Origin: Beroe forskalii | Taxonomy: Eukaryota; Ctenophora; Nuda; Beroida; Beroidae | Assembly (NCBI GenBank): GCA_011033025.1 | Contig: WFMF01000328.1 | Span: 1 to 64,000, forward strand | Direction of reading: 5' to 3' | Length of the DNA: 64,000 nt | In this document: positions 344 to 24,536 of the stretch, piece by piece | Position numbering within the stretch: position 1 is the first letter of the stretch | Layout of the letters: every line of letters starts with the position of its first letter | Program-made: the position numbers and the translations under genes | The notes under the pieces: model-generated | What the model was told of the DNA's origin: nothing | The model's input: only the letters and a program-made list of their open reading frames with translations | Database searches by the model: none

Positions 344-2510
344 GGTCAACTGAAAGTATGATTTGACATAATTCCAACCAGTTTTTCAGCATGGTTGGAG
401 GTAGATGGACTGAAAGCAATATTCTCGTTTTTTTACTTAATATATCTCAAAATTTGAGGTTTTACTTATAATACTTTTTAGTCTATTGTTTTATATAATT
501 TTAAATTTCAAATCAACCAATGTGGAGCATACACACCAATATAAACTAGCATTCCATTTGTCACTTGAAGCTTTTTTATCGAACTGGGGTTATTCTAGAA
601 ATGGAAATGTGCAATACATACCCAAACAGTTAGAAATACCCTGGTGGACAAGATCACAGCCAACCATTGTGGAGCAAAAACAATGAAAATTGGGCTGATT
701 TCAGAGCCATAAAATACCATATTTTTTCTGAAATCAGCCTGTATTTTGTTTGTAAGGGAACAACATGAGTCTCTAGAATACTATATATGCAAATATATGA
801 TCATATATTGACCAACCCAGTGGAGTAGGTGATTATTTGAAACTCATCCAGTAAAAACTATTATTGGGGCTGCATGGACTCAAATAAGACACAAATTTAT
901 GAGAAACGACATCAGAAGTTTGTAAATATCAACCTACAACTATTCCAATGCATGTGAGGTTGTACCACGTTCATCCAACCATGTGGAGGCAAAACTTTTA
1001 CCAGAAAATCACGTTTTAACACGGATGATTTTTGGGATACTAAAATTTGAGAATTAGCAATTTTTGGTTTAATTGAAAGTTGAAAACATCATTAAAGATT
1101 TGGTAAGTTTTAAACAATTCTATCCAACCATGTGAGCAATGGCTTTAAAATGGGGCTATTTTAGTTGCGGCAATTAAATAGCATCCGTCTTCAATATTCC
1201 AACAAATCTTTTTGAGATGGAGGTATCAGAACTTAAGAAATATATCTCAAAGGGCCCTCGACAGCAACAACCCAACCAGTGTGGGAGCAATAAGGTCATC
1301 ATTGAGGGCATCTGGAGTCCTGAGCTAAAATTACTAGGATGATATATAGTATTATGCAATAGATATAACGCAGAAACTGGATTATGATTGTGCATTGTAG
1401 TCGCTCAATCATCAAGACAAGGCGTTTACCAACTATGTGGAGCAAGATACGTGTTCATTTTGGAAAAAGGGGACGGTTAAAATTATTTATAAAATCGGTC
1501 TTGGCAAACAGGTCTTGCTCCACGTGGTTGGACTGTTAACTCGAAACTGGCCTAATATGGTTGGCCTATACCAACTATACAGAAAAGTATAAAATTAACA
1601 TAATTTTCAATACAAGAATGTGCAAGTAAATTACTTATTTAATGGTGACATACTATTGAGTAAAACTTACTTTTAGATTTACTATTTTGCATCATTTTGG
1701 AGGTCAGCCCACTGGCTTGGAGCTCTTGTGTTGAATCTTTTGCCCAAGAGGATGTTTATTCATGCATCCATATTATTAGAGTCTCATATGGATCCGGCAT
1801 CAATCCAACCCCGTGGGAGCAGTCTTTTCCGATTCAAACAGGCCTTGCCCATGGTTGATTTGTTAGAGATTTAAATTACTCCACATGGTTGGCTCTAGAA
1901 TAAAGTTACTTGAATAGATAACTTGGGGCAAATTTAATGTTCCTGTGACTTTTTACAGCCACTTTTTGCACCATATCTGAAAACCAAAAGTCTAAAATTA
2001 TGGATTTTTGACATGACTTTTTGAAATGCCTGCTCCACAGTGGTTGGTAGGAATTAATAAACGAATATGATTGATTTAAATTGACAAGAGAATGAATTTT
2101 GCTGTGATGAAAAACCATTTGTTTCTATCTCAACTCCACACCCTGGTTGGATAGATATATGTCTCAAAATCAGTTATTGCCTATTACCCACATTGGTTGG
2201 ATGGTTTTGAATCGTTTTTTCATCGCATCTGAAGGGCATAATGATGCTAAAATTAAAGTTCACTCAAAAATAATTCAAAACCTCACAAGTTTTTGAAATA
2301 TGCCCGCTCCACACAAAAATGCTCCACAATAGAAAACCTTGCATAACTTCTGCTCCACAAACACTATTGAAATGGTTTTTTCAACCATCTTACAGCCAAA
2401 ACATTTGAGCATAAGGCAATAATCTTCACTAAGTGGCTCGGGAATATGGATTCGATTGACAGCCATTTTCCTAAACCATGGTTTTTGTCAAATCATACTT
2501 TCAGTTGACC
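344..2510. mobile_element. Inverted-repeat element FB1 with dispersed motif
   Basis: The ends are perfect 25-bp inverted repeats: GGTCAACTGAAAGTATG... at 344-368 and its reverse complement at 2486-2510. Inside, a motif near CCAACCATGTGGAGCA recurs roughly every 150 bp. It is forward near 513, 660, 812, 974, 1123, 1272, 1429 and 1805, and reverse-complemented near 1514, 1879, 2032, 2134 and 2188, so the orientation changes around 1470. No transposase frame is present. This looks like a non-autonomous DNA transposon whose interior is an array of possible protein-binding sites. The superfamily is not identifiable by eye. Confidence 0.75.
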
Positions 2511-2574
2511 TTATAAAGGAGCAGAAAGATGCATGAAAATGTACCAACCACCACCACGACGACACACGGTCGCG

Positions 2575-2712
2575 CGCAGCACCTATTTCAGATTTTTGAA
2601 GCCGTAAAGGTAGTATACAATACACAACCCCCCAAAATACATGATCTCTGCTAACCTATTCTCAATGCCTTTTTGTAAAACAAAAACGCAATTGGGAACA
2701 GGAAAAAATGTT
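2575..2712 (-). repeat. Dispersed repeat family R, copy 1
   Basis: This block matches 51968-52110 in opposite orientation at high identity. Shared stretches include CACCTATTTCAGATTT, GTAAAGGTAGTATAC and GCCTTTTTGTAAAACAAAAA. A more diverged third copy lies at 7400-7560. No protein is encoded. It is probably part of a short interspersed or MITE-like element whose ends I could not define. Confidence 0.7.
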
Positions 2713-3660
2713 AAATGTTTTTTGGGCCACCCAGTATCAACCCTCTTACTGCTACAAAACTTAGCCCACTGTCCAACTCTCCTATATAACCAGTTAGTAA
2801 ACAACATTTTATTTAGTCATCTTCACCCACTTTCATCACCCTCACCTGCTTGGTACTCTGTACTTCAAACCAGCTATGTCCCATTACCTCACCACCTCCA
2901 TCAAGCAACAAATTTCTGTACATCTAGACCCTTAGAAATTAAATATTAAAGGACAAAACTGCAGCCCATGTGGAAAGGATGTCCCCTCCCAATGAATCTG
3001 ATTTAGCGACAGAATCATCATTAATGAACAACTGTCATGCAACTACTCCAAACAGGAAACTTCTAAAATCTTTGAAGTACCTGTGACCTTCAAAATGCTG
3101 GAATAGACCCTGTATTCTATCCAGACGAAACAGCAATACACATAGTAGAAGACTGTCTACCATTCTCCTTACAGGGAATATTCCCTGACCAACCACTTCA
3201 TAAAACAATCCACAAGCTAACAAAGTTTTTTCATTGAAACTAAGTGAGCCTATCTCACTTCTTTTGATTTCCTAATACTAAGACGATAAACCTAAAAAAA
3301 TACAACCTAATAACTATTTCCTTCTCTGCTGTTCAAGGCAGTAACCTGGAACTGGGCTTTGCCAATTGAGCCCAGTTAAATCCCAATTGATGGGAAAATT
3401 CAAGAGGTTGAAGTTTAAACGAAATAACTGATACGATAGAATTGTATTCAGAAGCTTTCGAAAATCATGAGATTATCGTCGCCAGCTGAGAGTGAAGGAT
3501 GGGAATATTATTTACACAGTCTGGCTGGGTCAGACCTCCCTGTGAACCATCTTGATGAAGGGAGGTGGTTCATAGCCACCTTCAGCATATCTCTGACTTA
3601 ATATACAGGCAAGCATTATCTTGCTTTGCAGTCTAATTGATGCCAATGGGTGTTGCCAAT
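2713..3660. other. Intergenic, nothing recognised
   Basis: The open frames here are short and show neither protein similarity nor splice context. No repeat structure was seen. Confidence 0.4.
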
Positions 3661-4210
3661 TTTGGCGCTTTTGGCACCAAGAATTTTTTAAGGCCTAACA
3701 AATTCAAATTCAAATTCAAAGGCCTAACTCAAAAATACAGCTCCATTAGTTTCTGCAGAATTGTGTCTTCAATTCAATTCAATTATAAGATTTAACAGCA
3801 CAGTAATTAAAATATACTCCCTCCACTTGGTGGACATATAAACATATAAAGAAGCAGCTAGGTTGTGCTGAGGGCAGGCACCAAGCCAAATTTAGAATCT
3901 GTGGAAAGAATTGTGCAAAAATATCAATCATAGCTGGTGTTATTAGCCATTGAATTAAGTGCACTTTTGAAAAATCGTGAACTGGGAAAATGGTGATTTC
4001 AAGGTTTTAAAGAGGTTTTTTGAACCTCAAATGGTCATTTAAGCAGCAATCAACCCCAAGTTTGTAGTGAATACATAACCCAACACTATTTATTGATTAA
4101 ATGCTGGTTTTTTGGCAAAGTTATGGGATAAAATAGGCTTATGTGAAGTCCATATGCCCATATTTGGCATATGTTTTTCACCCATAACTCTTTAGGGACA
4201 CTTTACAACA
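3661..4210 (-). repeat. Dispersed repeat family P, copy 1
   Basis: The block around 3955-4180 is the inverted counterpart of 46690-46930. Both contain a run like AGAGGTTTTTTGAACCTCAA, a segment like TTTAAGCAGCAATCAA and a TATGCCCATAT box. The neighbouring AAGGCCTAACTCAAAAAT at about 3720 matches the arm of the perfect palindrome at 46995-47074. No coding capacity is visible, so this is a non-autonomous repeat. Confidence 0.65.
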
Positions 4211-4935
4211 ATATTACAACTAGGTTGTAATATTACAACAATATTACAATTATCAAGGATCCTGTCAAAGACTAAGGAAAGAGCTGTTAGAAATTTTTGT
4301 GGCTTGACTGTACAAAGATGACTGTATTTGTATCCCAAAGATAATTATCTTACAACAAATTATATCTGACAAAGATGAATGTATTTGTACTACAAAAAAG
4401 AACAAATTATATCACAACAAATTGGAAACTTTGGAATGATAAAAGAAAGTAAACTTTTATATCAAAGCTTTCAAAATCATCAATAAAATTAATAATAATA
4501 ATAATAATAATCATAATAATATAATTGTTGTGTAATGAGTATAACACATTTATGTCACTCTCATTCTTCATCATCATTCTTCATGTCATGCACCTCTACA
4601 AGGTACTCTTAGTTTTCTTTAAAAACTGAAATACATTTTGAAATGCACAATCACCAATGCACGATATAAATAATTAAACAAAATTTCAATTAAACAGCAG
4701 CACAATCATATCATAAAACATTGCTCATAATATTGCATTGCTTACAATGCTTTTGAAATCAAGTACGTTCAAATTTTCACTACGTTAACAGGATCATCAA
4801 GTCTCAAATAAGATATTTAAAAATTGAGAAAATACATAAAAACAAAACGTGCAATAATGCAATGATGTGTTAATTAGAGCATAAAGAATGCTAAAAATTG
4901 GCAATTCCTTGTCCTAATTCCTTGTGGAATTAGTA
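4211..4935. other. Intergenic with (AAT)n microsatellite
   Basis: A trinucleotide AAT run occupies about 4488-4533. The rest is AT-rich with no supported gene. Confidence 0.5.
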
Positions 4936-5600
4936 CACGCCGCGCGCGACGATAATAGGGGTATACGTGTTTAGCAATTCCGTGTTCTTGCTTTCTGCAC
5001 CTATTGATAGACCCTCAACGGCTCGACTCCCGAGTAACGTGCCGACGCGACGCAGCTGCATCAGTGGGCATGGAATCACCAGGCAACGCGCAAAGGGCGC
5101 GAAGCCCCTGGCATGGTTGGAGAAAGACGCGGCCGCGGTTAGGGGAATGTATATCCCTGTTCGCGTTGCGCGGCGCGCTTCTTTCCCCTGACTCGACCTG
5201 TTACTTGCCAGACGTAATGCCTGGCGCCCCCTGCGCGAAGCTTGCTAAACGCGTATATCCCTGTTATCGTCGCGCGGCGCGTACACACACCTATGCGGGC
5301 TTAGGAAGCGCGCGCGCCCCGACTAGGCAATGTTTGGCATTTTGGCAACTTGTTACCTATACCGCCTGTCGCGTCGCACCGAGCACTTTATCACTAATTT
5401 GATACTTTGTGCTTGCCCTAACCAGGGCCCTGGTTAAGCGCACAGAGTGCGCAGCGCGGCACCCCTGGTTAGGGGAAACTGTGCGCGAAATTATACCATG
5501 GTGCTGGTTAAGGTTGCCAGGCCACAAGCGTTGCCTGAGTACCCCCTCGCGCGCGCGAAGCGCGCTCGCCACGACTCGCGACGCACACTCATTCTTGTCT
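4936..5600. other. CpG-rich GC-rich islet 1
   Basis: About 650 bp are strikingly GC- and CpG-rich (many GCGCGC and CGCGCG words) inside an AT-rich background. It contains an 18-bp perfect palindrome, TAACCAGGGCCCTGGTTA, at 5419-5436 and two near-repeats of a TATATCCCTGTT...GCGCGGCGCG block around 5147 and 5252. Open frames up to 132 codons occur in several frames, as expected where stop codons are rare, and none looks like a real protein. Related smaller islets lie at 30827-30960 and 38800-38905, so this is more likely a repeat family than a promoter island. Confidence 0.55.
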
Positions 5601-6017
5601 CTTCGGAGTGGCAGCCTGATTTATGTTTACAAGTAAACACAGTCGACTTGATCTCCTGATCTTGTCTGGACCAAATGGAACTTTAGGTTCCCTTCTAAGC
5701 TTAAGTAGAACATGGTTTTAATGCATATTTCAGCAATTGGTAAGGGTACACACTACATACAATACAACTGATGCCCGATGGAATGCTTGGAACAATCATG
5801 GGAACATTATAGTTATGTTAATGATGTGATCCAATGTCTTATCTATAGAGGTGTATGGGTATACTACAAACATAACAAAATACTGAATATCGATTTCCTA
5901 ATTCAAAGATTGACATAAGGGGCGGAAGAGACTAAACTGTGAATCATCAGTGGTTACCCTACAGTTGTAAGGTCTCCCTGCCATCTATGATGTAGGTGTA
6001 CCATAATTGGAATTGTT
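5601..6017. other. Intergenic, nothing recognised
   Basis: No exon, RNA gene or repeat seen. Confidence 0.4.
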
Positions 6018-6268
6018 AGGTATCTTGACACAAGCAACCTTGACAATTGACATTTCTCGATTAAATTGGGCAATCTTGTCCTATTGAAATTGACCTTTCT
6101 CAACTGTTTCTCAGCCGTTTCTTGACTGCATCTCGACTAAATCTCGACCTAATATCGAACCAAATCTCGACTTATTCTTGACTGAATAGTGAATTTGAGC
6201 CCATTTGAACAAAACCTCGATAGAGTCTTGACCAATTGACATTCAAGGTGGCTTGTGTCAGGATACCT
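6018..6268 (+). mobile_element. MITE-A copy 1
   Basis: A 251-bp element has near-perfect terminal inverted repeats of about 26 bp, starting AGGTATCTTGACACAAGC and ending in the complement GGCTTGTGTCAGGATACCT. The interior is built from short TCTCGAC-type words. It has no coding capacity. The second copy, in the same orientation, starts 388 bp downstream, and the 387 bp between the two copies hold nothing I recognise. Confidence 0.85.
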
Positions 6269-6655
6269 CTCCACTTCTGTGTTCCAGTAACACTGACATG
6301 ACTTATTACACACATTTCCACACTCATTTCATTTGATCAATCCATTTGATCGACGTGTAACGATGCAGGTGCCTGAGGTTGGTTCTTTCCAGTGGAAATT
6401 TACCCTACCTCATATTCTCATCCCCTTTCTATTCCATTCATATATGTCTATAAACCCTTACGTCTGTCATCTATATACCCCTATACCACTTCACCAAGGT
6501 TGTTTTATCATGATTATGAATGCCACCATTGTGTTTGACATTTTTGCCACCATGATCATCTCTCTAGCTCAAACGGTTTAAAAGTTATGGCACCCTAAAG
6601 TTTTAGGTCACATGTTCCCATGTGCTTGAGTTCCAAAACGATTTGTTCTGTGGGA

Positions 6656-6894
6656 AGGTATCCTGACACAAGCCACCTTGACATTTCTCCACGAAATTGG
6701 GCAATCTCAACTTATTGAAATTGACCTTTCTCAATTGTTTCTCAACCAAATCGCGACTAAATCTCAACCTAATCTCCGCCATACCTCAAACCAAATCTCA
6801 ACTTATTCTCGACTGAATTTGAACAAAGTCTCGACAGAGTCTTGACCAATTTTGCAAAATTTTGACTGTCGAGGTGGCTTGTGTCAGGATACCT
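6656..6894 (+). mobile_element. MITE-A copy 2
   Basis: This is a 239-bp sister of 6018-6268 in the same orientation. It has terminal repeats AGGTATCCTGACACAAGCC / GGCTTGTGTCAGGATACCT and the same internal order of words. Internal divergence of roughly 10-20 percent by eye suggests independent insertions or an old duplication. Confidence 0.85.
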
Positions 6895-7399
6895 AATGTG
6901 ATGATGATTAGCTAGGTACCTAGTATAGTACCTACCCATTTAACTAGTAATTAGTATCAAAATTCAAACATTCAAAAAGATATAAAACCAAAACTTCTAT
7001 AATCATGAAAGCATGAAGGAACACATTCAAAAAATCAATAATTTCTTCTCAAGAAGCAAATTCTCAAATTTAAAAGTTTGGCAAAATCGTACCACAGGAA
7101 CACGACAAAAATTAGCCTCCATTAGCCTCCATTAGCCTCCATGGAGGCTGAGTTCCTGAGGGAGGCCAATTTAGAAAATTAGCCTCCACGGAGGCTAATG
7201 GAGGCATGAGGCTAATTTTCAAAAAATAGCCTCCACTATGGAGGCTAATTAGCCTCCACCCAGCCTCCACTAGGCTCCACTAGCCTCCACTCAGCCTCCA
7301 TGGAGGCTAAATTTTTGGTTTAGCCTCCACTAGCCTCCACTCAAGAATTAGCCTCCATTAGCCTCCACGGAAATTTAAAAAGTCATTTTTTCCCTCCCC

Positions 7400-7560
7400 A
7401 TTGGCATTTTTGTGTATACAAAAAAGCAAATGAGAGGGTTGGTAGAGATCGTGGTTTGGGAAGGTGAGAAATAGGAATATGTGTATATCAGGTCGAGGTT
7501 TGCAATACAACTACTGTAATTTCTGGAAAGTGCCCGGATTGCTCCTTTATAATATCAGTC
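7400..7560 (+). repeat. Dispersed repeat family R, copy 3 (diverged)
   Basis: It shares the order of words TACAAAAAAGCAAATGAGAG, GGTAGAGATCGTG and GCTCCTTTATAATATCA with 51990-52190. Identity is clearly lower than between copies 1 and 2. It lies inside the core of FB2. Confidence 0.5.
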
Positions 7561-7966
7561 GCGAAAATGTCCCTCCGTCCCTCCGTCCGTCCGTCCCTCC
7601 GTCCCTCCGTCCCCTTTTTCACACAAATCTTCAAAATCACGAATTTCCTAATTCATGAAGCTTTCGGTTGTCAAAAATTTTAATCTCATACGTTGACCAG
7701 GCCCATGATCCGTGCCACATTCCCAGTCACTAAAGTTTTCATATCGACCAAATGTAATGTCCTGGAAATTGATTTTCATTTCGACTTTTTCAAACACAAA
7801 AAACACGATTTTTTTTCGCCAAAAAAGGTATTGACCGAGTAAATGTGAAGATGGCTTGCCAAATTTGACTATTCTCTGAGAAATGATGTGGAAAATTGAA
7901 TCAATATCACAATAAAAAACTGAAATTTTACACGCGTTGTTACACATAATTAACGTGTCATTTCAC

Positions 7967-8049
7967 AACTTTGTAGCGCAATTGGTTAGCGCGTCAGACT
8001 TGGTAGTGCTGGTACGCTAGAGGTCACGGGTTCAAGCCCCACTATAGTC
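7967..8049 (+). pseudogene. tRNA-like sequence, degenerate
   Basis: Both internal RNA polymerase III promoter boxes are intact: A box TAGCGCAATTGG at 7974-7985 and B box GGTTCAAGCCC at 8029-8039, with tRNA-like spacing. The D arm GCGC-AATTGGTTA-GCGC pairs well. The anticodon stem does not close, only three T-stem pairs form, and the acceptor stem has two mismatches. This is therefore a tRNA pseudogene or the head of a tRNA-derived SINE rather than a working tRNA. The original amino-acid identity cannot be read. Confidence 0.55.
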
Positions 8050-8278
8050 AAATTTCAAATTTTTATTTTCTTAGCTTATCTTCAGTTTTCTGATAGTAAA
8101 AAATGATCCCGTACAGCCCAATCAGTTCATCAGAAAGGTTTTAAATCAGGTCACAGAAAATTTTCAGTAAGTTTAATTCAGCAGTTAGATTTCGAAATAC
8201 ACGATGGCACGATACTCAAATAAGCATGTTGCCCAGGTCATTAAGACTAGAATTCCAAAATGTTGAGTTACAAGACAT

Positions 8279-8363
8279 CAAGCATCGCGGGGAGGGAAAT
8301 TAAGCGCCTGCATACGGGAACAATGGACAAACAAGAACTGTGTCGGCAGGCGCAATGCTTGTT
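8279..8363 (+). other. Pseudoknot-forming repeat, copy 1
   Basis: GCGCCTGC (8304-8311) is complementary to GCAGGCGC (8346-8353). AACAAG (8330-8335), lying inside that loop, is complementary to CTTGTT (8358-8363), outside it, giving an interleaved H-type pseudoknot. An alternative outer pairing is CAAGCA (8279-8284) with TGCTTG (8356-8361). A second copy, with the same order and a matching GGAAATTAAG leader, is at 53245-53308. Function is unknown. Confidence 0.5.
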
Positions 8364-8716
8364 GTGGAGGCTAAAGCCTCCATATGGAGGCTAAATGAGG
8401 CTAATGGAGGCTGAGTGGAGGCTGAGTGGAGCCTAAATCAATGAGCCTACAAAACACAAAATTTCTTGCTGAAAATAATGATAAATGTGTACTAATGTGA
8501 ATAACAATTTATAGCTTCAAACTTTCAGACAGCTCCAACTGTCCTACACTCAGCCTCCACTAGGCCCCACTCAGCCTCCACTAGGCTCCACTCAGCCTCC
8601 ATGGAGGCTAATGGAGGCTAATTTTTGTCGTGTTCCTGTGGTACCATTTTGCCAAAACTTTTTAAGTGTCATTAAACATATCAATAAGCATAATTTTCAA
8701 GTGTCAATAAGAATAT

Positions 8717-9094
8717 ACCTTATTGGCCCTTATTTAATGACTTTTAGATTTTTTCCAAGGGGCCAGTTGAAAAAATGGCAGATTGAAGCGGGGCCAATTA
8801 GATAATAGGCCAGTTGATTTAAGTCAGTTGAGACTCTTATTACTTGGGTTTTTACTACATTAGATTCATTATATAACACAGATAATGACTTAAATCATGA
8901 TATTAGACCAGGATTTGAGTTTCTTGGTGTAATATAGTTACTTAGTATAAGTTGGTTTTCGTGGCTGTTTTTGAGCAAAAAGATCTTGGTTCGGCAACTG
9001 CTTGAAAATTTTTGTCCAAATGGTTCAAAAATTATTCAATTTTTGTCCATGGGGCTGGTTAAAAAAAGGCCCGCTAAATAAAGGCCAATAAGGT
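8717..9094 (+). mobile_element. MITE-B copy 1
   Basis: A 378-bp element is bounded by ACCTTATTGGCCCTT and its complement AAAGGCCAATAAGGT. The interior contains GACTTAAATCATGATATTAGACC and a TTTTTGTCC...GGTTCAAAAAT block, all of which recur in the second copy at 41205-42118. It has no coding frame. Confidence 0.85.
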
Positions 9095-10444: not shown

Positions 10445-10990
10445 CTACATTGCATTTTTTCGACCAATGAAAGCTTTGCAAGAAGGACATGAATGAACTG
10501 CATCCTTTACACTATCAAGTAAGAATGGAATGAAGCAACAAATCCCAGTGAAAATGAATAAGATACAACATAACAACCAACCCAATGTACCAAACTCATA
10601 TTCCACCTTTGTCTGAATTTGAGCATGGCATGATGGGCATATCATATTCTGTGGAAATCTGGAAGCAATAAATGCCGCCTGAGGAACTACAACAACTTGT
10701 GCAGGTGGAGCTTGTGCTTGGGGAGGTGGATATGCAGCTTGTTGTGGAGGTGGATAGCCACCGGCTGGAGGAGGACCACCAGGTGGAGGGTAGCCGCCTG
10801 CAGGTGGAGGGTAGCCGCCTGCCGGTGGAGGATAGCCACCTGCGGGTGGAGGATAGCCGCCTGCCGGTGGAGGGTAGCCGCCTGCGGGTGGAGGGTAGGC
10901 ACCTGCTTGAGGTGGGTAGGGTGCTGCAGGACCAGATTCCGAGTACATTGGTGGTGGGGCTGCTGCTTCTCCTTCCTTTGTATCAGCCAT
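10445..10990 (-). CDS. LITAF-domain membrane protein 1 (181 aa)
   Basis: A single coding exon of 181 residues. Residues 1-30 include PPMY (13-16), a PPxY motif of the kind that binds WW domains of NEDD4-type ubiquitin ligases in LITAF. Residues about 31-90 are repeats of GGYPPPA, encoded by a 21-bp DNA repeat. Residues about 112-178 form the LITAF domain: CPSC (C118, C121), a hydrophobic membrane-inserted stretch at about 133-158, then HSCPSC (C168, C171). In the family these paired cysteine knuckles bind zinc and anchor the protein monotopically on late endosomal and lysosomal membranes. A likely splice acceptor (TTTCTAG) ends 6 nt before the ATG, so a 5' non-coding exon is expected. The foldback element FB3 begins only 33 bp upstream of the ATG. 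The domain assignment is secure; the cellular role is inferred from the family. Confidence 0.9.
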   Translation of the reverse strand: MADTKEGEAAAPPPMYSESGPAAPYPPQAGAYPPPAGGYPPPAGGYPPPAGGYPPPAGGYPPPAGGYPPPGGPPPAGGYPPPQQAAYPPPQAQAPPAQVVVVPQAAFIASRFPQNMICPSCHAQIQTKVEYEFGTLGWLLCCILFIFTGICCFIPFLLDSVKDAVHSCPSCKAFIGRKNAM

Positions 10991-11022
10991 AGATTGCTAG
11001 AAATAATTATTTCACTTGAAAC

Positions 11023-12178
11023 GGTTAAATCCAAGCAGAGGAATACAGTGAAAATTAGCCACCATTAGCTGATTGGTGGCTGGGTGGTGGCTCGGTGGTG
11101 GCTGGGTAGTTGCTAATGGTTGCTTAATTTTCTAGATTATCCCCACTGTGGCTAATGGGGGCTATTCAGTATTCACTGGTAGCCACCACCCAGCAATCAT
11201 CCAGCCACCATGGGGACCAAAATGGTGAATAAGCCACCACTAGCCTCCATTAGGTCCGAATGAAAACTTAGCCACCATCAGCCCTAACAGTTTCATTCTA
11301 ATGTATTTTTGGGGAAGCTGGTGAGGGCTAAATGGGGGCTAATGGGGGCTTAGTGAGGGCCGAGTGGAAATCTACTGCATTATCCTGTATATAGTATCCA
11401 CTTCGAAAATAGAAAGAAACTAAAAATCTGAAAAATTGCTCGGAAAAGGGTGTTAAAAACAAGGTTTGTTCCATTAGCCCCAAAGGCAACCATTGACCCC
11501 TGCCAGAATAAAACAAAAATTTCAGAATAAAACAAAAATTTTATTTAGCATTTCATTGAACACACCTAAAATTACTAAAAATATGTACGAACAAAAAGCT
11601 TATAATTATAAATGATTTCTGATTTCAGGGTAATATGGGAGTAATAATGATAGAGTGTTCTAGTTGAGGGATTCTGATTTCAGGGTAATAGGGGAACTCT
11701 AGCATTAGAGCATTCAAACAATAGGGTTCTGCCAGCAACCATAAGCACCACCAGCAACCATAAGCACCCACCAGCAACCATAAGCCCCACCAGCCACCGT
11801 TAGCCCCCTCCAGCGACCACTAGTGGGGGCTAATGGTTGCTGATGGAGGCTAACGGTTGCTGGTGGGGGCTAGTGGTCGTTGGTGGGGGCTGATGGTCAT
11901 GGTATTGCCAGCAACCATTAGCTCCCGCCAGCAACCATTGACCAAATGGCGTGATTAGCCCCCACTGGCTATCTGTAGCCCCCACTAGCTTCCACATGGG
12001 AGCTATAGCTTCCACCAATATGTAATTGATGAAACTAGTTTGGGCTGATGGTGACTAATTTTTCAGTGGGACTTTGTGGGGGCTAGTGGTGGCTTATTCA
12101 CCATTTTAGCAGTCACCGTCGCTGGGTGCTGGCTAATGGGATTTAATTTTCGTTGGGTTCCTCTGCTTGGATTTAACC
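11023..12178. mobile_element. Foldback element FB3 (AGCCACC arrays)
   Basis: The terminal inverted repeats begin GGTTAAATCCAAGCAGAGGA at 11023 and are mirrored at 12178. The interior is made of short variants of GCCACCATTAGC, AGCAACCATAAGC and their complements, with orientation changing towards the middle (about 11700-11950). No protein is encoded. It lies between the two LITAF-like genes, and its right end is about 26 bp upstream of the likely 3' splice site of gene 1, so it probably sits in that gene's 5' intron or promoter. Confidence 0.8.
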
Positions 12179-12711
12179 CTTAAAACCAACACACCATGTG
12201 GTGTCAAAACTTTTTGAGGCACGGTGTATAATGCTTTGCTGGCTACTTCCATTGTAAGTACTTTACAAGCTGTCACATACACAAAAAAGTAGGTGCCATG
12301 TCGTGGCATGATACACCGTGACACTTGGGTCAAATTTAGGTCTATAGAATCAAACTTTTTGTTCAAAATCATAGAAACCATATAATTATATTAACTGCCA
12401 TTGAATTAATATATCTCTGAAATTTCATCATCTTACTTCTTATAACTTCTTGATTTCCATGAAATTAAGAATTATGAACAATCAGATCATTAATTTGATG
12501 AAAAATATGTATAATGTTAAAACATAATATTCAATGAAGTACTTGTATTACATCATACTTACATGCATATCTTAAAATACTAAAATGTAAGTTAAAACTA
12601 ACTTGAAAAATTAAAATGCTGCTTATCCTAAATGAATTCACAATTGATCCTAAGTTCTATTTAAGGATTTCATCTGATTTCAAAATTATCTGATTGACCT
12701 TTAAAAACTGT
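12179..12711. other. Downstream flank of LITAF-like gene 2
   Basis: AT-rich region expected to include the 3' UTR of the minus-strand gene that stops at 12712. No other feature seen. Confidence 0.4.
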
Positions 12712-13464
12712 TCATGAACCTCCTGATCCACCAGACCCTCCAGAGCCTGCTGATCCGCCAGAGCAGCTTGATGCTTCCGAGTCTCCTCCACTGCGTCTCC
12801 GTGAACGTCTTCCCCTTCTCTTGCTATACCCTTTTCCAATTTTACAGTCACATGATGGGCATTTGTGAACTGCATCTTTGAAGTTGTCCATGAAGCATGC
12901 TATGAATGAACAAAGGAAGCAAAGCCCCAATGAGAACACAGTGATGAATATAGCTATGAGAATTGTTTGAATCCCTATTTTGTACTCTACCTTTGTTTGA
13001 ATATTTGCATGACATTTAGGGCAAATCATGTTGCATGGCTTTCTTCGGAGTTTCGGCTGGCTTTGCTGAATTATGACAGTTTGGGGCTGTTGGAAAACCA
13101 CATTAGAGTACCCTGCTGTTTCCACAGGTGGAAGTGGATGGCCAGTATTGTACTGCTGTGGGTAACCTGTACTTTGAGGGGGATAACCTGTGCTTTGAGG
13201 TGGATATCCTGGGCCTTGGGGTGGATATCCTGGGCCTTGGGGTGGATATCCTGGGCCTTGGGGTGGATATCCTGGGCCTTGGGATGGATATCCTGGGCCT
13301 TGGGGTGGATATCCTGGGCCTTGGGGTGGATATCCTGGGCCTTGGGGTGGATATCCTGGGCCTTGGGGTGGATATCCTGTGCCTTGGGGTGGATATCCTG
13401 TGCCTTGGGGTGGATATCCTGTTATTTGGGGTTGAATATTGCCAGGAGTACTGGGGTTTGCCAT
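12712..13464 (-). CDS. LITAF-domain membrane protein 2 (250 aa)
   Basis: A single coding exon of 250 residues and a paralogue of the gene at 10445-10990. Residues about 16-103 are tandem GYPPQGP heptads, encoded by a nearly invariant 21-bp DNA repeat at 13187-13430. Residues about 144-208 are the LITAF domain: CPKC (C148, C151), a hydrophobic segment at about 164-191, H200 and CPSC (C202, C205). Unlike the paralogue it continues into a basic patch (about 211-224, KGYSKRRGRRSRRR) and a Ser/Gly tail. A likely acceptor (TTTCTTAG) ends at 13492, 27 nt upstream of the ATG, and a candidate promoter with a non-coding exon lies at 14605-14696. Related LITAF and CDIP proteins act at endosomal membranes; that role is inferred here. 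Confidence 0.9.
   Translation of the reverse strand: MANPSTPGNIQPQITGYPPQGTGYPPQGTGYPPQGPGYPPQGPGYPPQGPGYPPQGPGYPSQGPGYPPQGPGYPPQGPGYPPQGPGYPPQSTGYPPQSTGYPQQYNTGHPLPPVETAGYSNVVFQQPQTVIIQQSQPKLRRKPCNMICPKCHANIQTKVEYKIGIQTILIAIFITVFSLGLCFLCSFIACFMDNFKDAVHKCPSCDCKIGKGYSKRRGRRSRRRSGGDSEASSCSGGSAGSGGSGGSGGS
13187..13430 (-). repeat. 21-bp coding minisatellite in LITAF-like gene 2
   Basis: About eleven tandem 21-bp units, read on the plus strand as GGTGGATATCCTGGGCCTTGG, encode the GYPPQGP heptads. Units are almost identical at synonymous positions, which points to recent unequal exchange or slippage. Copy number is likely polymorphic. Confidence 0.8.
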
Positions 13465-13491
13465 TGTTCAGCTTTTTTGGTAGTTGGATAC

Positions 13492-14604: not shown

Positions 14605-14696
14605 CTAATTGTTGTGCGACTGGCTGGCGCCTGGACAACTCCCTGACATCGAGGCTGGATGACAGCAAGAAGCTGGATGATGCAGGAATGTTTATA
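14605..14696 (-). promoter_or_regulatory. Candidate TATA promoter and non-coding first exon
   Basis: On the minus strand a TATAAA (14696-14691) is followed about 90 nt later by a good donor, TTAG|GTGGGT, at 14605/14604. This fits a transcript starting near 14663 with a short non-coding exon spliced to the acceptor at 13492 ahead of LITAF-like gene 2. It is an inference from spacing and splice signals only. Confidence 0.35.
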
Positions 14697-16084: not shown

Positions 16085-16213
16085 CGGCTGAGTGAACCAT
16101 GTGGCTGCTTAGGTGAGAGTCCTCACCCTTAGCACGATAGGCACGGCCGGGAATGAAACCACCAACCTCTCAATTGGAAGCATGACGCTATAAACCACTG
16201 CGATACCTGGCCA
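16085..16213 (-). mobile_element. tRNA-derived SINE, copy 1
   Basis: Read on the minus strand, the element begins GTGGCCAGGTATCGCAGTGG, has a degenerate B box (GGTTTCATTCC, 16161-16151) and continues GGCCGTGCCTATCGTGC. The same order occurs at 19700-19585. The pol III boxes are decayed in this copy. Confidence 0.65.
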
Positions 16214-17574: not shown

Positions 17575-18011
17575 GGTAAATTGAGCGATCCGTCTAGGCC
17601 AGTATCACGTCAGTACCGGGCCAGTATCGCGCCAGTATCACTGTATCAGGCCAGTATTGCGCCAGTATGAGGCCAACCTCACGCCGTTATCGCGCCAGTA
17701 TCGCGCCAGTATCACGCCAGTAGCGCGCCAGTAGCACGCGAGTACCGCGCCAGTATCACCCCTGTATCACGCCTGTATCACGCCTGTATCACGCCAGTAT
17801 CGCGCCAGTCGAAACAAACTTAAAGCCATGCTGCCAGAAACACACTGGGCTTTAAGTTAGTGTCGACTGGCGCGATACTGGCGTGCTACTGGTGCGCTAC
17901 TGGCGCGATTCTGGCGGGATACTGGCGCGATAACGTCGTGAGGTAGGCCTGATTTTGACGCGATAGCCGATACTGGTGTGATACTGGCCTAGAAGGATCG
18001 CTCAATTTACC
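17575..18011. mobile_element. Foldback element FB4 (GCCAGTATCGC arrays)
   Basis: The ends are GGTAAATTGAGCGATCC (17575) and its complement ending at 18011, extending into TCTAGGCCAGTATCAC. About twenty copies of GCCAGTATCGC fill the left half, and complementary copies fill the right half around a centre near 17830. AATATGGT occurs at 17561-17568 and 18014-18021, a possible 8-bp target duplication that is not flush with the inverted repeats. It is non-coding. The array is richer in CpG than its surroundings. Confidence 0.8.
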
Positions 18012-19330
18012 GTAATATGGTCGTTTTAGTGCCAGTCAATGTTGGAGCTAATGCAGAAGTTCGTAGCAGTACCATGTCATTTCTTACTAAATAGAGAAAT
18101 AGGTAGGTAACTACTAACTGAAGTAAGTGAATTGTGAATAGCGAGAAGGTACATTTTTCAATTTAATGAAAGATTATAGCACTGTTATAAAATACTAAAA
18201 TAGGAAAGGAAAGGCATCACGAAGCCATTAACTTACTAACTTATTGAGAATTAGCTCATAGGAATGTCAATGACTCGAATACTTCTCTGGTAAGCTAGTA
18301 GAGTTGTTGAGCAGTATGTATTGCTTCAGTACGTTAGTACGTTACGTAAATTTTATCACGTTAAAATACTAAAATGTGAAGCTGTGTATGAAATTATGGA
18401 GTACTAAAAATACTTAAATATTCCCTGAATTTCACACCTTCAAAGCATGAAAAATGACGTCATCGACTCATCCCTTGTGGCTGTGTCAATGACGTTATCT
18501 TCACTTCATGTATTATAAAATTATATTGCCTGTGTTGTGCGGAGTTTTTTGGCACCCCAAACAATCCATCGATATTAGGACCCCTTCCCCTCATCCATCG
18601 GTTGATATCAACATCGGTTGATAAAAAAATTTGCGTTTTTCGATAACCCAACAAACAAACTGAACGACAACGTTAGAGAAACACATGCAATGTAGAATGC
18701 AGATTCCTGCAAAGATCAGAATAAGAAAATAATAAAACATTTACTGATTCAAAGTTTAACATCTGACATATGGCAAAAGAATCTATACGGATTCCCATGT
18801 AACTGTGTAGATTCCCATGTAGAGGTGTAGTGTGTTCAGAAATGAATGGCATTTCCGAACATGTTGCACTGCCCTGGACTGTTGAAAGGTGGGTGACGTA
18901 AGCCGTCCACTGGGCATTTTTTTACGAAAAGCCTGTTTGACAGACGTTATTCATGGATTGCATTGACCTCTAATATCATCTTATCATATATCTAATATCT
19001 TATATTTAACGATATTTCTAAAATTTAAAGTTCCTGCATCTGAAAGTATTCTGTCTCCCGAAGCTGTGAATATTTCTTCTCCCTTCTCAATCTCCTCTTT
19101 TCAGTTAGTTCCATCTATCAGCCCACTGGAACACTACTATAATACACTATACACTTATACAGGCTTGCTGTACACAGCGTGTAATCTTGTTATCTGAACT
19201 CAAGTTCTCAAATTGATAGCAATTCAACAAAACGCACTACAAGACTACAAGAGTGCAAGTCCTCTCCCCAGCCCCATATCCTGATCCTGAATCCCACTTC
19301 TTCTCTTTTTCCTCTACCATTTCTCCTCCT
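18012..19330. other. Downstream flank of JPT-like gene
   Basis: No exon or repeat family recognised. The part nearest 19331 should include the 3' UTR of the minus-strand gene, but I found no clear polyadenylation signal. Confidence 0.35.
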
Positions 19331-20161
19331 CTAGCCGAAGCTGATGCTGGAGGCTCCACCTGGTGGGTTCTTTACTTTTGTGGAGGGCCTGTAGTTCACG
19401 TCGTAGAAGTTTGAGGGCTCCGCTTGGGCCGCGTTGTGTTGCTGTTGTTGCTGGTGAGCAGCTGGTGTTGTGTCGGGGGTGTCGAATACGTGGGATTCGT
19501 TGCGTTTAACCTGTGGGAATAAGCTAGGGGTTTAACACATGAACCTCAATAATGATTCGGAGACACTATTACTACTCATCTCCTCAATTTATGTTGAGAG
19601 TTTTCTCCCTTAGCACGATAGGCACGGCCGGGGATCGAACCACCAACCTCTCTATTGAATGAACGATGGCCGATGCCTTAACCACTGCGCCCCCGGCCAC
19701 TACCTAATACCTATCCCGTGACTCTATTCTCAGAATTTTCTAAATGATATCAGCTATTTTCTAAATGATACAAGCTATTCTAAATGATAGCAGCTATTTT
19801 TTCTTCCACTTCTCTGCCTCTGTTACTTACCTGAGTTTCTGAGACTGCGGGTTTAGTGACCTGTGGCTCGGGTCCGTCAGGCTGGAATATATTGAAAGAG
19901 CAGTCTCCACCAGGACTGTGAGTTATCCTGGGAAGAACGGCCAAAATGATAATCAGAACAAGTTGGAAAAACCCCATACAAAAACCATTGAATCAATGAT
20001 TATTTCTTTATTTATTAAGCAATTACCTTTTGCTATTTCACTATTTCCTTTTAGGATGATGGTATACATCAGGGAAAGACTCACTTCACGGAAGTCCCCT
20101 TCCTGCCCCCGAAGCCTCTCTGTCCAGCGGCCTCATCCATGGTGGTGTTCAGTGCAGACAT
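19331..20161 (-). CDS. Jupiter/JPT (HN1)-family protein, 3 exons
   Basis: Three exons join in frame: 20161-20085, 19915-19831 and 19510-19331, with donors GTGAGT and GTAAGT and acceptors ACTCACAG and TTCCCACAG. The product is 113 residues and starts MSALNTTMDEAAGQRGFGG. Family hallmarks are a first PGG box (NPGGDCSFNIF, starting at residue 26), matching the PPGGGSNFSLGF region of animal JPT1/JPT2, and a C-terminal NPPGGASSISFG matching the conserved NPPGGKSSLVLG end. A Gln-rich stretch lies between. Jupiter proteins in flies associate with microtubules; JPT proteins in vertebrates are small, disordered and cytoplasmic. Its length is slightly below vertebrate JPT1 (about 154 residues). A SINE copy sits in intron 2. 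Family membership is likely; the biochemical role is not predictable. Confidence 0.75.
19585..19700 (-). mobile_element. tRNA-derived SINE, copy 2
   Basis: On the minus strand it starts GTGGCCGGGGGCGCAGTGG. It has A-box-like GCGCAGTGGTTAAGG (19690-19676), a perfect B box GGTTCGATCCC (19641-19631) and the shared tail CCGTGCCTATCGTGCTAAGG. This copy is better preserved than 16085-16213. It lies antisense to nothing: it has the same orientation as the JPT-like gene whose second intron contains it. Confidence 0.75.
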
Positions 20162-22828
20162 GATGAAGCCAGTCTCAAATTTGATTACGAAATAGATTCG
20201 AGTTAAATATTAGATGGCACCGTTTTCAAAAATCTAATATGCATGCGTACAGCAGATCAATTAATTTGGATTACTATACTTTTTTGTCGATTCTAAGATG
20301 AAATCTAGAACACAAAACACAGAAGTGAAATTCAACTCCAAACACGAAGCGTACGAAGAAAATGAGAAACTAACAACTTGCTCCGTAAATATCATGTATT
20401 GGGATGGCTACGAATCCCCTGCAAGGACTTGTTATAGAGCTCTCTGACAAACCTATATAATATATAATATTTATATGCGTAAACGGAATAATTGATATGC
20501 AATGATGACCCTTGATGATGCCCATTCGTACATTTTGTTTTACTCGAAAATAAGAGTGAAAATACTGGAATTGTCTTCGCCTACTCATGAGTTAAGGTAC
20601 ACGTTATCTCAAAGTGCGTACAAAAGTACACAAACGGTCATTCGTAAATTTACGATTAAGGCACTTAAATTATTATTTGATCCTTTATTTTCACTGAGCA
20701 TTCAGCTAATCCATGGAATAATAAGTTAATGCTCTAATGAAGTAATAAGGTGTGAAATTCATCTTCTAAGCTCCTAGATGCCCGTAAAGAAATATAAAAT
20801 TTCAGCTGATGTTGACTTTGCAATCAGCGCCGATTCAGAGCCGATTCACCGCCGATAGGCGCTGTTCAGTGCCTGTCAGCGGTGAATCGTTGCTGATCAG
20901 CGCTGATCAGCGCTGATTGCAAACATTAAACAACATCTGTCAAACATCTGTTTAGTATACAGCAAAGGAGTTACATGAGAAAGACTTGACAAGTCACCTA
21001 CATCCTATCATGGGAACTAGAATGCTAGAATCTTGACAGAATTATAATGGGGCCAAGAACCCTCCCCTGGGAATTATTTAAAATCTAATGAAGACTATTT
21101 CTAGTTGGAACCTGTACACGAAACTTTAGGATTCACATCTTATCTCTAAATGCATGATTTAACTGAGAAATTCAATATGCACCCAATTTGAATTTCTGTG
21201 AAATTATTGAAATTTTACTGAAATTATTATTTATTTAACCACTGGGAAAGCTCAAGTTGAAGACGTGAAATCGCTATAAAACTATAAAACTTTGGGGCCC
21301 TGAACACTGGAAGCATCATGTTTTATAAGGTGTAGAATAACCTGTAGTGCAGACAACAGCAATTCACAAACAACTTCACAAAACACAAGATAAAATTATA
21401 TTTTCTTCTTTTCTACTTGTTCGTATTTCGCTAGAGCGAAAGTTTTAAATTGGCACACGAATGCTTGTCTAATTTTGCTTATGAATATACTCATTATAGA
21501 TCCATGTTGTAACCTTCACTAATACAACTTGAAATGAATTATTGTATACCAATTCAATGTGTATTCCATGACGTTCCGTCATGATCGAAATCAATTTCAA
21601 ATTCATTAAGCTTTTTCATGATACATAACGTGATGATGCAATCAATGATGTAATTTCGGCTTTAGTAAGTTAGTACAACCACTTTAGTAATTCATTCACC
21701 TCAGTAATTTCACCAAATCACTGAACTGATGGTATAGGCCAATGAACAGGTAGGCATTGTGCCATGCTAAGTGCACTGTGAATGAGGATACTTAGTCCGT
21801 TCCATGGCGGAAAATATTTATTTTCCGCTTCATGTGGTCAATTTTCTCGCATTATAGGGACACTCTAAGATTAGGTATCAGAAATCACTTCGTTTTACTT
21901 GCAGATACCTGAAATTCCAAGATGCTGTTGGAAGAGAGGATGGGTAGATTGTAGAAGAAACTCTTATCTCAGATTCATTACTCTATTGCCCAAGATGACG
22001 CTTCATAGCTCAATGATGTTATCGCATCATGTTATTATGTTAGGTAAGAGACTCGCCATTGACTATTACTATTTCGTTATTTCTTAATTATTGACTTTCT
22101 ATTAACTAACTATGAACAAACAATGGACTAAATATCGTCTAATTATTGACGAATTTTGATTGACTTACTTGCTTGACTTACTATAATTGACTAACTATTA
22201 ACTATTAACTTATTAACTATTGAGTATTGACTAGTATTTTGATATTCATTACTGTATCATTGATCAAAGTATACCAGTATTCATGTCACATGTGATGGTG
22301 TTGAAGCACCTATTTTGGTGTAACAGAGCAACATTGAGCTTGTTACATTAAATTGATCCAACCCCGCCCTGGTCATGTGACGTTGCATTACGTAGGGTAC
22401 CACGTAAAACGTGCCACACCCCAGCCAAAACAGCAGAACATGGCACGCCATAATATGCGCCATTCTCAAAAGTCAAAACCGTATTGCAGGAGGCACACGG
22501 ACAATAGCCCCTTGAGAGTGACCCCATCATCAGGGCTTTGTATGGTGAACTGGTGATGCTATGCGACCTATCCTGACGCATCACAGGCCAGCATATGTAT
22601 CGCGATATATATTAATTTCCTGATTCGTAATATATAGCGTGCTGCTCGCGCATTGTAGTAATTTGATTAACTGCTGCAGCCATTGTGAGAAGAACAAAGG
22701 CCCGGTGCCTACAATGGGCTACTGGGCTATCCCGGGCTTATAAGGTCGTGTAGAGCCCTGCACGTGCTGTAAAGCTGTAAGTAGTGATGGTAGACTTTAG
22801 TAAATACTGACCAGTCCAGGTTACCCTG
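20162..22828. other. Intergenic, mostly featureless
   Basis: Apart from the hairpin at 20818-20921, no gene, RNA or repeat family was recognised. Confidence 0.4.
20818..20921. repeat. Hairpin-forming inverted repeat
   Basis: TTGCAATCAGCGC at the left pairs with GCGCTGATTGCAA at the right, and GATTCACCGC pairs with GCGGTGAATC inside, giving a folded stem of about 100 bp with internal mismatches and repeated CGATTCA / CTGATCAG words. It resembles a very short foldback MITE. Confidence 0.6.
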
Positions 22829-22906
22829 TCACGGTTTTGTTAAATTCCGCATCATCTTTACGAAATCACAGTCTTTTCCTGGTAGTTCCTTCATGGCCGC
22901 CTCTTC
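22829..22906 (-). CDS. Candidate terminal exon, unknown protein
   Basis: After a weak minus-strand acceptor (CCAAATAAG), 26 codons run to TGA and encode EEAAMKELPGKDCDFVKMM and a short tail. The charged composition looks protein-like, but I could not find a convincing upstream exon and do not recognise the family. It may be chance. Confidence 0.2.
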   Translation of the reverse strand, partial: EEAAMKELPGKDCDFVKMMRNLTKP

Positions 22907-23221
22907 CTTATTTGGGAAATAAAAACTTTAAATAATATTGTGAAATCAGCATTGACTAACAGCGTTTGTAAATTGCTTTTGTATCTTTCTCCAGTAGACG
23001 ATGGTTTTATACTTTTAATATGTGTTTTTCATGGACTAATACTTGACACTGGACTTGTTTGATTGCAGTAACCAGGAACCATAGTTTCTGGTTTCATAGC
23101 TGGAGGTTCTAATGGGTTTTTAAACGACAACCGATATCGGATATATGCATTGAAATGTTAGACTAGGTGCGAAAATGAGAACTGATTAATTGAAAAATAA
23201 GCGTAAAAGTGAGTAGATATT

Positions 23222-24536
23222 AATGGGGTTGGCAAGTATGGGAGCCCGGGAATAGGGGGAGGCATTAATGCTCCCCCTATTCCCGGGATCACAAATTACA
23301 GAGTTCACCGTACGGAGGCTTCCCCTAAACCTGGGATCACCTCTAATCACGGACTCCCCTGTACACTGCTCCCCTTAATCTAGGGCTCCCCCGATTGTCC
23401 GGGGCTCACCTCTATACACGGTCTCGCCCATACCAGACTCACCCTATTGCCGGGCTTCACCATACCAGGCTCCACCGGACCTCGGGCTTCACCAATGCCT
23501 TGGGATAACCCCGATACAGGGGCTCACCCGTACCAGGCTCACCCTTACCTTGGGCTTCGCCATACCAGGCTCACCCGATCCTCGGGCTTCACGGATGTTC
23601 TGGGATAACCCCGATACAGGGACTCACCCGTACCAGACTCACCCTTATCTTGGGCTTCACCATACCAGGCTCCACCGAACCTCGGGCTTCACTGATGTTC
23701 TGGGCTCACCCTCAAACATGGCATCACCCATACCAGGCTCACCCTTACATTGGGCTTCACCGTACCTGGCTCCACCTTATCCTGGGCTACACTGATGTTC
23801 TGGGCTATACCTGAAACATGGGTGAGCCTCGTATGGGCGATCCCATGTTTCAGGGTGAGCCCAAGTTATGGTGGAGCCTAGGATTAGGTGGAGCCAAGTA
23901 CGGTGAAGCCCAAGGTAAGGGTGAGCCTGGTATGGGTGATCCCATGTTTCAGGTATAGCCCAGAACATCAGTGTAGCCCAGGATAAGGTGGAGCCAGGTA
24001 CGGTGAAGCCCAATGTAAGGGTGAGCCTGGTATGGTGATGCCATGTTTGAGGGTGAGCCCAGAACATCAGTGAAGCCCGAGGTTCGGTGGAGCCTGGTAT
24101 GGTGAAGCCCAAGATAAGGTGAGTCTGGCATGGGTGAGCCCCTGTATCGGGGTTATCCCAGAACATCCAGAAGCCCGAGGATCGGGTGAGCCTGGTATGG
24201 CGAAGCCCAAGGTAAGGGTGAGCCTGGTACGGGTGAGCCCCTGTATCGGGGTTATCCCAAGGCATTGGTGAAGCCCGAGGTCCGGTGGAGCCTGGTATGG
24301 CGAAGCCCAAGGTAAGGGTGAGTCTGGCATGGGCGAGACCGGGTATAGAGGTGAGCCCCGACAATCGGGGATCCTAGATTAGGGGGAGTGGTGTATAGGG
24401 GAGCTTTCATAAGAGGTTATCCCATGTGTAGGGGAGGCTTGGGTGCGGTGAACTCTGTAATTTGTGATACCTAGAATAGAGGGAGCCCTTGTCACCAAAA
24501 CGGATACATGGGCTCCCCCTACTTGCCAACCCCATT
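23222..24536. mobile_element. Foldback element FB5 (TGGGCTTCACC arrays)
   Basis: The terminal inverted repeats are AATGGGGTTGGCAAGTA (23222) and its complement ending at 24536. The left half is built of units such as CCATACCAGGCTCACC and TTGGGCTTCACC, and the right half (about 23820 onward) carries their complements, e.g. GGTGAGCCTGGTATGG. Subterminal CTCCCCCTATTCCCGGGA lies near both ends. Open frames up to 195 codons are merely translations of the array. There is no transposase. Both flanks carry a related direct repeat (TTGAAAAATAAGCG-like), which could be part of the target or of a larger unit. Confidence 0.85.

What the first reader, a model, noticed from the sequence alone, without database searches (positions are those of the whole stretch)
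344..24536. One transposon architecture, several unrelated repeat units
FB1 (344-2510), FB2 (7069-8667), FB3 (11023-12178), FB4 (17575-18011), FB5 (23222-24536) and, less sharply, FB7 (34455-34820) all show terminal inverted repeats, then short-unit arrays in one orientation, a turning point, then the same unit complemented. The units (CCAACCATGTGGAGCA, GGAGGCTA, AGCCACC, GCCAGTATCGC, TGGGCTTCACC, TTTACCATAAG) are not alike. Drosophila foldback elements are the established precedent for inverted-array termini. Here many families in 64 kb seem to have converged on it, suggesting one transposition or amplification mechanism that generates or selects subterminal arrays.
Basis: partly seen in the sequence, partly recalled or inferred. 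Interest (0 to 1): 0.7.

Follow-up and report, generated by a model that had tools for sequence, protein, structure and literature searches.

The report
Array-armed jumping genes, several lineages
This stretch of what is probably an animal genome holds several real jumping-gene families whose ends carry mirrored arrays of short repeats; at least two different transposase lineages seem to have built the same layout, and in one further family the repeats sit at very regular steps of about 150 bases.

Summary
FB1-FB5 are mobile elements, not local inverted duplications. Termini in the genome: FB1 27, FB2 465, FB4 371, FB3 only 17; about 39 FB5 arms were tallied. Target duplications differ: FB1 4 bp, FB2/FB3/FB4 8 bp, FB5 2 bp. 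"Units are not alike" is partly wrong: FB2 and FB3 have related ends and nearly the same unit, and link through a sister family (L028) to a decayed Merlin transposon (L048) with inverted 11-bp arrays around its transposase. FB5 looks like the hollow form of an ISL2EU-like element: 8 of 35 DDE_Tnp_4 matches in the genome lie inside FB5 arms (0.04 expected). So two transposase superfamilies share the layout; FB1's 4-bp duplication suggests a third. The strict order (array, turn, complement) holds for FB4, FB5 and FB7, mostly for FB1, not for FB2/FB3. FB1 is no tandem array: 16-bp boxes recur every 146-163 bp in unrelated sequence. Most likely the units are secondary transposase-binding sites, as shown for Galileo; that is inferred here. 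Independent origin of foldback form is already in print; Merlin and ISL2EU cases and FB1's stepped boxes did not turn up in my searches.

The parts
344..2510 (+). FB1 element, GGTCAAC...GTTGACC, 4-bp target duplication TTAT at 340-343 and 2511-2514
   Evidence: 27 termini, 12 pairs of 2148-2911 bp; duplication exact in 7 of 8 examined
514..1444 (+). FB1 left array: seven 16-bp boxes (CCAACCATGTGGAGCA) starting at 514, 660, 812, 975, 1124, 1272 and 1429
   Evidence: spacings 146-163 bp, spacers not alike, evenness reached in 0 of 1,000,000 random placements
1516..2360 (-). FB1 right boxes in the opposite orientation, less regular, ending in half boxes
7080..8653 (+). FB2 element, GGCAAAAT...ATTTTGCC, 8-bp duplication AAAAGTTT/AAAACTTT at 7072-7079 and 8654-8661
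   Evidence: 465 termini at up to 2 mismatches, control 0
7385..8363 (.). Unrelated 979-bp very high-copy repeat lying inside FB2
11023..12178 (+). FB3 element, GGTTAAATCC...GGATTTAACC, 8-bp duplication CTTGAAAC/CTTAAAAC at 11015-11022 and 12179-12186
   Evidence: 17 termini at up to 2 mismatches, the window's own two included
11504..11731 (-). 228-bp end of another repeat lying inside FB3
17575..18011 (+). FB4 element, GGTAAATTGAGCGATCC ends, 11-bp units; inverted twin at C390:167344-168118
23225..24533 (+). FB5 element, GGGGTTGGC...GCCAACCCC, 2-bp duplication AT; A arm to about 23822, B arm from about 23941; no coding centre
34455..34820 (.). FB7: low-copy TTTACCATAAG array without clear termini; not shown to be a transposon

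Best explanation
These are non-autonomous cut-and-paste DNA transposons of at least two, probably three, superfamilies: FB2/FB3 (with a sister family in L028) Merlin-type, FB5 ISL2EU-type, FB4 an 8-bp-duplication family that may be Merlin, FB1 an unassigned family with a 4-bp duplication. Each has a short terminal repeat, where cutting happens, and inside it many copies of a short site, facing inward in FB1, FB4 and FB5 and in mixed orientation in FB2 and FB3. Shown: common termini, target duplications, copy numbers, changing centres and array lengths, and transposase-bearing relatives for FB5 and for the FB2/FB3 clan. Inferred: the sites are secondary binding sites for the element's transposase, giving multivalent end recognition; selection for capture by a transposase made elsewhere keeps the arrays, while slippage, unequal exchange and faulty gap repair change their length and remove the centre. 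The likeness among superfamilies is then convergence on one solution, not one shared mechanism.
For: Termini and controls. Target duplications: FB4 8 bp exact in 9 of 17, FB1 4 bp exact in 7 of 8, FB5 the same dinucleotide on both sides in 8 of 8 (7 AT, 1 AC), FB2, FB3 and the L028 family 8 bp with 7 of 8 matching each. FB5 transposase: 8 of 35 DDE_Tnp_4 matches inside FB5 arms, 0.04 expected; 7 of 7 with a securely typed arm run from arm A to arm B. Merlin: L048 has a decayed transposase gene over the PF12762 cut-off between 8 plus and 10 minus units of 11 bp and ends like the L028 family. FB4 twin: same insertion, differing by a 327-bp centre deletion between GCCAT repeats plus one 11-bp unit. 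FB1 boxes: even spacing with unrelated spacers. Precedent: Galileo transposase binds sites in its repeated long TIRs (PMC3688188, passages).
Against: No binding or transposition was tested. All 8 FB5-linked transposase matches are partial (profile 17-94 or less) and weak (26.7-57.9 bits); the best-scoring matches of that family lie elsewhere. The eighth arm, C170:674646, cannot be typed securely (92% to B over its length, 96% to A over a shorter stretch). AAT...ATT around FB5 could also be read as part of the terminal repeat; the AC/AC copy is the main evidence for a duplication. No Merlin gene was found inside FB2, FB3 or FB4, and L048 ends match FB2 and FB3 directly at no more than z 4; two L048 fragments scanned alone had no Pfam match. 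FB1 boxes are not significantly better conserved than spacers between copies (pooled 820 of 2000, L002 112 of 2000, L003 1284 of 2000). FB2 and FB3 arms mix orientations.
Confidence: 0.65

Rival explanations
1. Passive arrays: the units are by-products of slippage and of palindrome-prone replication or gap repair in hollow elements, with no role in transposition; the likeness among families reflects a mutational bias of this genome.
For: Unit number varies widely among FB4 elements (4-13 plus, 4-20 minus); an FB5 copy holds a 2.5-kb array of a 20-bp unit; FB2-type arrays run beyond 1.2 kb in L035 and L104; FB2/FB3 orientation is mixed; box conservation between FB1 copies is not significant.
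Against: FB1 boxes recur evenly while the spacers between them show no likeness, which plain duplication does not leave; a Merlin copy with a gene also has inverted arrays on both sides; FB4 and FB5 orientation is strict.
Confidence: 0.22
2. One superfamily only: all FB families derive from one transposon clade with variable target duplication, and the units drifted apart.
For: All five ends start with GG; FB2, FB3 and the L028 family are related; Merlin genes occur in the genome.
Against: Duplications of 2, 4 and 8 bp; FB1, FB4 and FB5 ends match no other family convincingly (FB2R-FB5L at z 4.2 was equalled by a shuffle); FB5 is tied to DDE_Tnp_4, while 0 of 35 PF12762 matches fall on any contig with a tallied FB5 arm (lists compared by eye).
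Confidence: 0.07
3. Local inverted duplications or assembly effects, not mobile families.
For: FB3 has few close copies; FB7 is low-copy without termini.
Against: Many dispersed copies with common termini and target duplications.
Confidence: 0.03

Closest known systems
Galileo (P superfamily, Drosophila)
   Same: Long inverted ends with internal tandem repeats and variable structure; transposase THAP domain shown to bind sites in them (PMC3688188, passages read)
   Different: Another superfamily; binding not tested here; FB1 boxes sit in unrelated sequence at about 150-bp steps
Mutator-type foldbacks: Tetris (PMC4079207), Tm1 (PMC3169594), Drosophila FB/NOF
   Same: Inverted arms of tandem repeats, non-autonomous copies (Tetris passages; Tm1 search listing only; FB/NOF recalled)
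   Different: Tetris duplications are 8-10 bp; FB1 and FB5 duplications are 4 and 2 bp. Mutator genes were not searched for, so FB4 could still be one
ISL2EU group of PHIS transposons (PMC4482050)
   Same: FB5: AT duplication in A|AT|T, GG ends, DDE_Tnp_4 match inside long copies
   Different: TIRs there are 6-259 bp; FB5 arms are about 600 bp and repetitive; THAP and YqaJ parts not examined
Merlin superfamily (PMC8101967)
   Same: FB2/FB3 clan: GG ends, 8-bp duplication, related Merlin-bearing copy L048
   Different: TIRs there are 24-462 bp; inverted unit arrays are not mentioned in the passages I saw, apart from 163-bp and 12-bp tandem repeats in one family

Membership tests
ISL2EU (FB5) | 2-bp AT target duplication in A|AT|T | tested here: met
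   same dinucleotide on both sides in 8 of 8 (7 AT, 1 AC); partly ambiguous because AAT/ATT is also an inverted repeat; definition
ISL2EU (FB5) | Termini begin with GG | tested here: met
   one of 16 ends examined (C376 left) differs
ISL2EU (FB5) | PHIS-type DDE transposase in autonomous copies | tested here: met
   8 of 35 DDE_Tnp_4 matches inside FB5 arms, all partial
ISL2EU (FB5) | THAP domain and separate YqaJ ORF | not tested
PIF/Harbinger (FB5) | TWA 3-bp target duplication | tested here: not met
   flanks; definition
Merlin (FB2, FB3, L028 family) | 8- or 9-bp target duplication | tested here: met
   7 of 8 bases match in each of the three elements examined
Merlin (FB2, FB3, L028 family) | Termini begin with GG | tested here: met
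   definition
Merlin (FB2, FB3, L028 family) | IS1595-type transposase in a copy with the same ends | tested here: inconclusive
   L048 has the transposase and ends like the L028 family (z 4.5-6.0) but not like FB2 or FB3 above z 4; none seen inside FB2, FB3 or FB4
Merlin (FB4) | GG ends and 8-bp duplication | tested here: met
   exact in 9 of 17
Merlin (FB4) | Ends related to a Merlin element | tested here: not met
   FB4 ends match only each other above z 4, with the one Merlin element available
Kolobok (FB1) | TTAA-specific 4-bp duplication | tested here: not met
   TTAA in 1 of 8; TTAT, ATAA and TAAT in 6; 1 without; definition
Mutator foldbacks (FB2-FB4) | MULE transposase | not tested
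   No genome search left for it

The most novel reading that the evidence does not exclude
Several unrelated transposase superfamilies in one host independently rely on arrays of short inward sites for end recognition, and FB1 places its sites at nucleosome-like 150-bp steps in otherwise unrelated sequence, so that the transposition complex assembles on chromatin-phased sites, perhaps through a host factor common to all.
Probability: 0.15. Interest if true: 0.75.

Novelty: new variant of a known kind. Interest (0 to 1): 0.5.

Why it matters
A paper I saw in passages says that most foldback elements seem to be Mutator relatives (PMC4079207). Merlin- and ISL2EU-type versions in one genome turn the question why foldback ends evolve again and again into a comparative test: one host, different transposases, hollow copies and transposase-bearing relatives side by side. 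FB1's evenly stepped boxes separate site spacing from tandem duplication and can be tested directly.

Tried and rejected
TTAA duplications for FB2, FB3 and FB5 (first reading by eye) were dropped once exact ends and more copies were compared. FB4's 4120-bp pair in C237 as an autonomous copy: the 1301 bp read from its middle are an FB2-type array. The long centre of the FB4 twin as a transposase remnant: the one 67-aa frame scanned had no Pfam match. A 145-aa frame over FB1 boxes in L003 as a gene remnant: nothing above cut-off. The Merlin gene in L068 as FB4's partner: it lies outside the element. The FB1 alignment had L002 the wrong way round and was redone; only box positions and spacer scores are used. 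FB2R-FB5L end similarity at z 4.2 was treated as chance, since a shuffle equalled it. A helical-turn rule (units of 10-11 or 20-22 bp) was considered, but FB5 arm spacings do not fit, so it is not claimed.

Rows and limits: one search took 17 FB4 elements from 20 loci (L058 shows one end only; L065 and L068 repeat the places of L054 and L053). FB1 duplications were examined in 8 of 12 pairs; FB5 in 8 elements. Searches list only the first 100 places, so pair sizes come from those. The 39 FB5 arms and the pairs were typed by hand, with partial and overlapping rows merged by eye. In one search arm C170:674646 was labelled B on bit score; identity does not bear this out, so I count 7 securely typed cases, not 8. 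My second checkpoint note says 10 of 17 exact FB4 duplications and a 338-bp centre deletion; the outputs give 9 of 17 and 327 bp plus one 11-bp unit.
Full report
Setting. The window is contig C390:1-64000 of an unnamed 216-Mb genome in 1134 contigs. Two LITAF-type genes flank FB3. That the host is an animal is an inference from gene content and from ISL2EU, which the paper seen reports only from animals. No tRNA or Rfam match was found in the window.

Observation. Of the unit hits in each element, those fitting plus-left, minus-right are FB4 25 of 25, FB5 36 of 37, FB7 13 of 13, FB1 9 of 10 (56 of 1000 label shuffles do as well), FB2 21 of 30 (265 of 1000) and FB3 25 of 44 (697 of 1000). The layout is strict in some families and mixed in FB2 and FB3. 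Two middles are foreign: FB2 contains a 979-bp repeat with 2647 first-look candidates in the genome, 40 of them scored; FB3 contains 228 bp of another repeat.

Mobility. Terminus counts, with the pattern read backwards as control (0 each): FB4 371 exact, FB2 465 at up to 2 mismatches, FB3 17 at up to 2, FB1 27 at up to 3. FB1 forms 12 pairs of 2148-2911 bp, none longer. Among the first 100 listed places FB4 gives 22 pairs of 94-689 bp and one of 4120, FB2 26 pairs of 1767-2392 bp and three of 3033-4835. Target duplications: FB4 8 bp exact in 9 of 17, one more with 7 of 8 bases; FB1 4 bp exact in 7 of 8 (TTAT, TAAT, TTAT, ATAA, TTAA, TTAT, ATAA; L004 fails); FB5 AT on both sides in 7 of 8 and AC on both sides in 1; FB2 and FB3 8 bp with one mismatch each.

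The FB2/FB3 clan. FB2, FB3 and a family nested inside an FB2-type element in L028 (401-1452, duplication CATGGAGT/CATGGAGC) have related ends: FB2 with FB3 z 5.8-9.4, FB2 with the L028 family z 6.1-7.4; FB3 with the L028 family did not pass z 4. Their units are TAGCCTCCA, TAGCCACCA and TAGCCCCTCAC. L048 (C760) shows a decayed Merlin transposase gene, over the PF12762 cut-off in the genome search, although two of its fragments scanned alone had no match. It lies between 8 GGCGGACCTAA units (107-213) and 10 inverted ones (1148-1276), and its terminal repeat resembles that of the L028 family (z 4.5-6.0) but not FB2 or FB3 directly above z 4. A second Merlin gene, in L068 (PF12762 3e-20), is followed by about seven copies of a 21-bp unit. 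GG ends and 8- or 9-bp duplications are the printed marks of Merlin (PMC8101967, passages). None of the 35 PF12762 matches falls in a listed FB2 or FB4 pair, by eye and over partial lists. FB4 has GG ends and 8-bp duplications, but its ends match nothing else here.

FB5. The arms come in two types, A and B, about 91% alike when inverted. Of nine convergent pairs read, six have one clear A and one clear B arm; in three (C376, C189, C170:643944) one arm is nearly tied. A stretch inside one pair (C170:485500-491217) continues as 2.5 kb of a 20-bp unit. DDE_Tnp_4 has 35 matches in the genome; 8 lie inside the 39 tallied FB5 arms against 0.04 expected. All 8 agree with the labels typed, but one label (C170:674646) is insecure, so 7 of 7 secure cases run A to B. 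The matches are partial (profile 17-94 or less; 26.7-57.9 bits). ISL2EU is described with AT duplications in A|AT|T and GG ends (PMC4482050, section 5 read). FB5 in the window is then the hollow form whose arms nearly meet.

FB1. Only the outer 28 bp form a terminal repeat; otherwise the halves share little but a 16-bp box. Seven boxes face inward on the left at spacings 146, 152, 163, 149, 148 and 157 bp. Seven spacers, one of them running past the centre, are no more alike than shuffles (mean local score 16.8 against 16.5). So even a spacing was reached in 0 of 1,000,000 random placements, a test made after the pattern was seen. The other four full copies read show the same step with extra sites. 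The plain account is very old tandem duplication with only the box kept; either way the box looks constrained. Against this, boxes are not significantly better conserved than spacers between copies (pooled 820 of 2000, L002 112 of 2000, L003 1284 of 2000); the copies are 93.6-99.7% alike, which gives little power. The superfamily is open: Kolobok's TTAA rule (PMC9587614, passages) is not met.

Array and centre change. The window FB4 (437 bp) has an inverted twin (775 bp) at C390:167344-168118; the alignments run 97% over 1181 bp on one side and 89% over 443 bp on the other. The 338-bp difference is a 327-bp centre deletion between GCCAT repeats (junctions) plus, by subtraction, one 11-bp unit. 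Among 17 FB4 elements plus units number 4-13 and minus units 4-20.

Mechanism. For Galileo a THAP domain binds sites within the repeated long TIRs (PMC3688188, passages). The same model fits here: a terminal cutting site plus many secondary transposase sites, with multiplicity giving specificity and capture. ISL2EU transposases are described with THAP domains, which makes FB5 a good test; THAP in these copies was not examined.

Known or new. That foldback form may arise independently in different lineages is in print (PMC4079207, passages), and long TIRs in different superfamilies are a highlight of PMC3688188. Seven searches listed no title or abstract opening on Merlin or ISL2EU foldbacks or on 150-bp stepped boxes; the library is open-access and most listed papers were not opened. 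I file this as a new variant of a known kind.

Noticed in passing
window 7385-8363; L010-L028: A 979-bp repeat with 2647 first-look candidates, a microsatellite-like GTCCCTCC stretch, a tRNA-like segment and a hairpin at one end; it may be a Helentron/HINE-type element (recalled resemblance, not tested).
   Followed up: partly
window 11504-11731; L030-L048: A 228-bp end of a longer repeat with a short tandem CAGAATAAAACAAAAATTT tail, 210 first-look candidates; it lies within about 3 kb of a Merlin transposase match in C122 (twice), C225 and C760.
   Followed up: partly
window 31335-32180: A further long inverted-repeat structure (GGCAAATC...GATTTGCC) without unit arrays; the inverted likeness goes on into the flanks.
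   Followed up: partly
C390:16112-18246 and C390:165844-169618 (L053, L068): Part of the window has an inverted copy about 150 kb away in the same contig, 89-97% alike; real duplication and assembly effect were not told apart.
   Followed up: partly
C1013 and C170: Clustering: C1013 holds 8 of 27 FB1 termini and C170 12 of the 39 tallied FB5 arms.
   Followed up: no
window 10448-10996 (-) and 12715-13467 (-): Two LITAF-type zinc-ribbon genes with proline-rich 7-residue repeats encoded by 21-bp arrays lie on either side of FB3.
   Followed up: partly
window 36674-37784: A 44-bp G-rich tandem array of about 1 kb, origin not examined.
   Followed up: no
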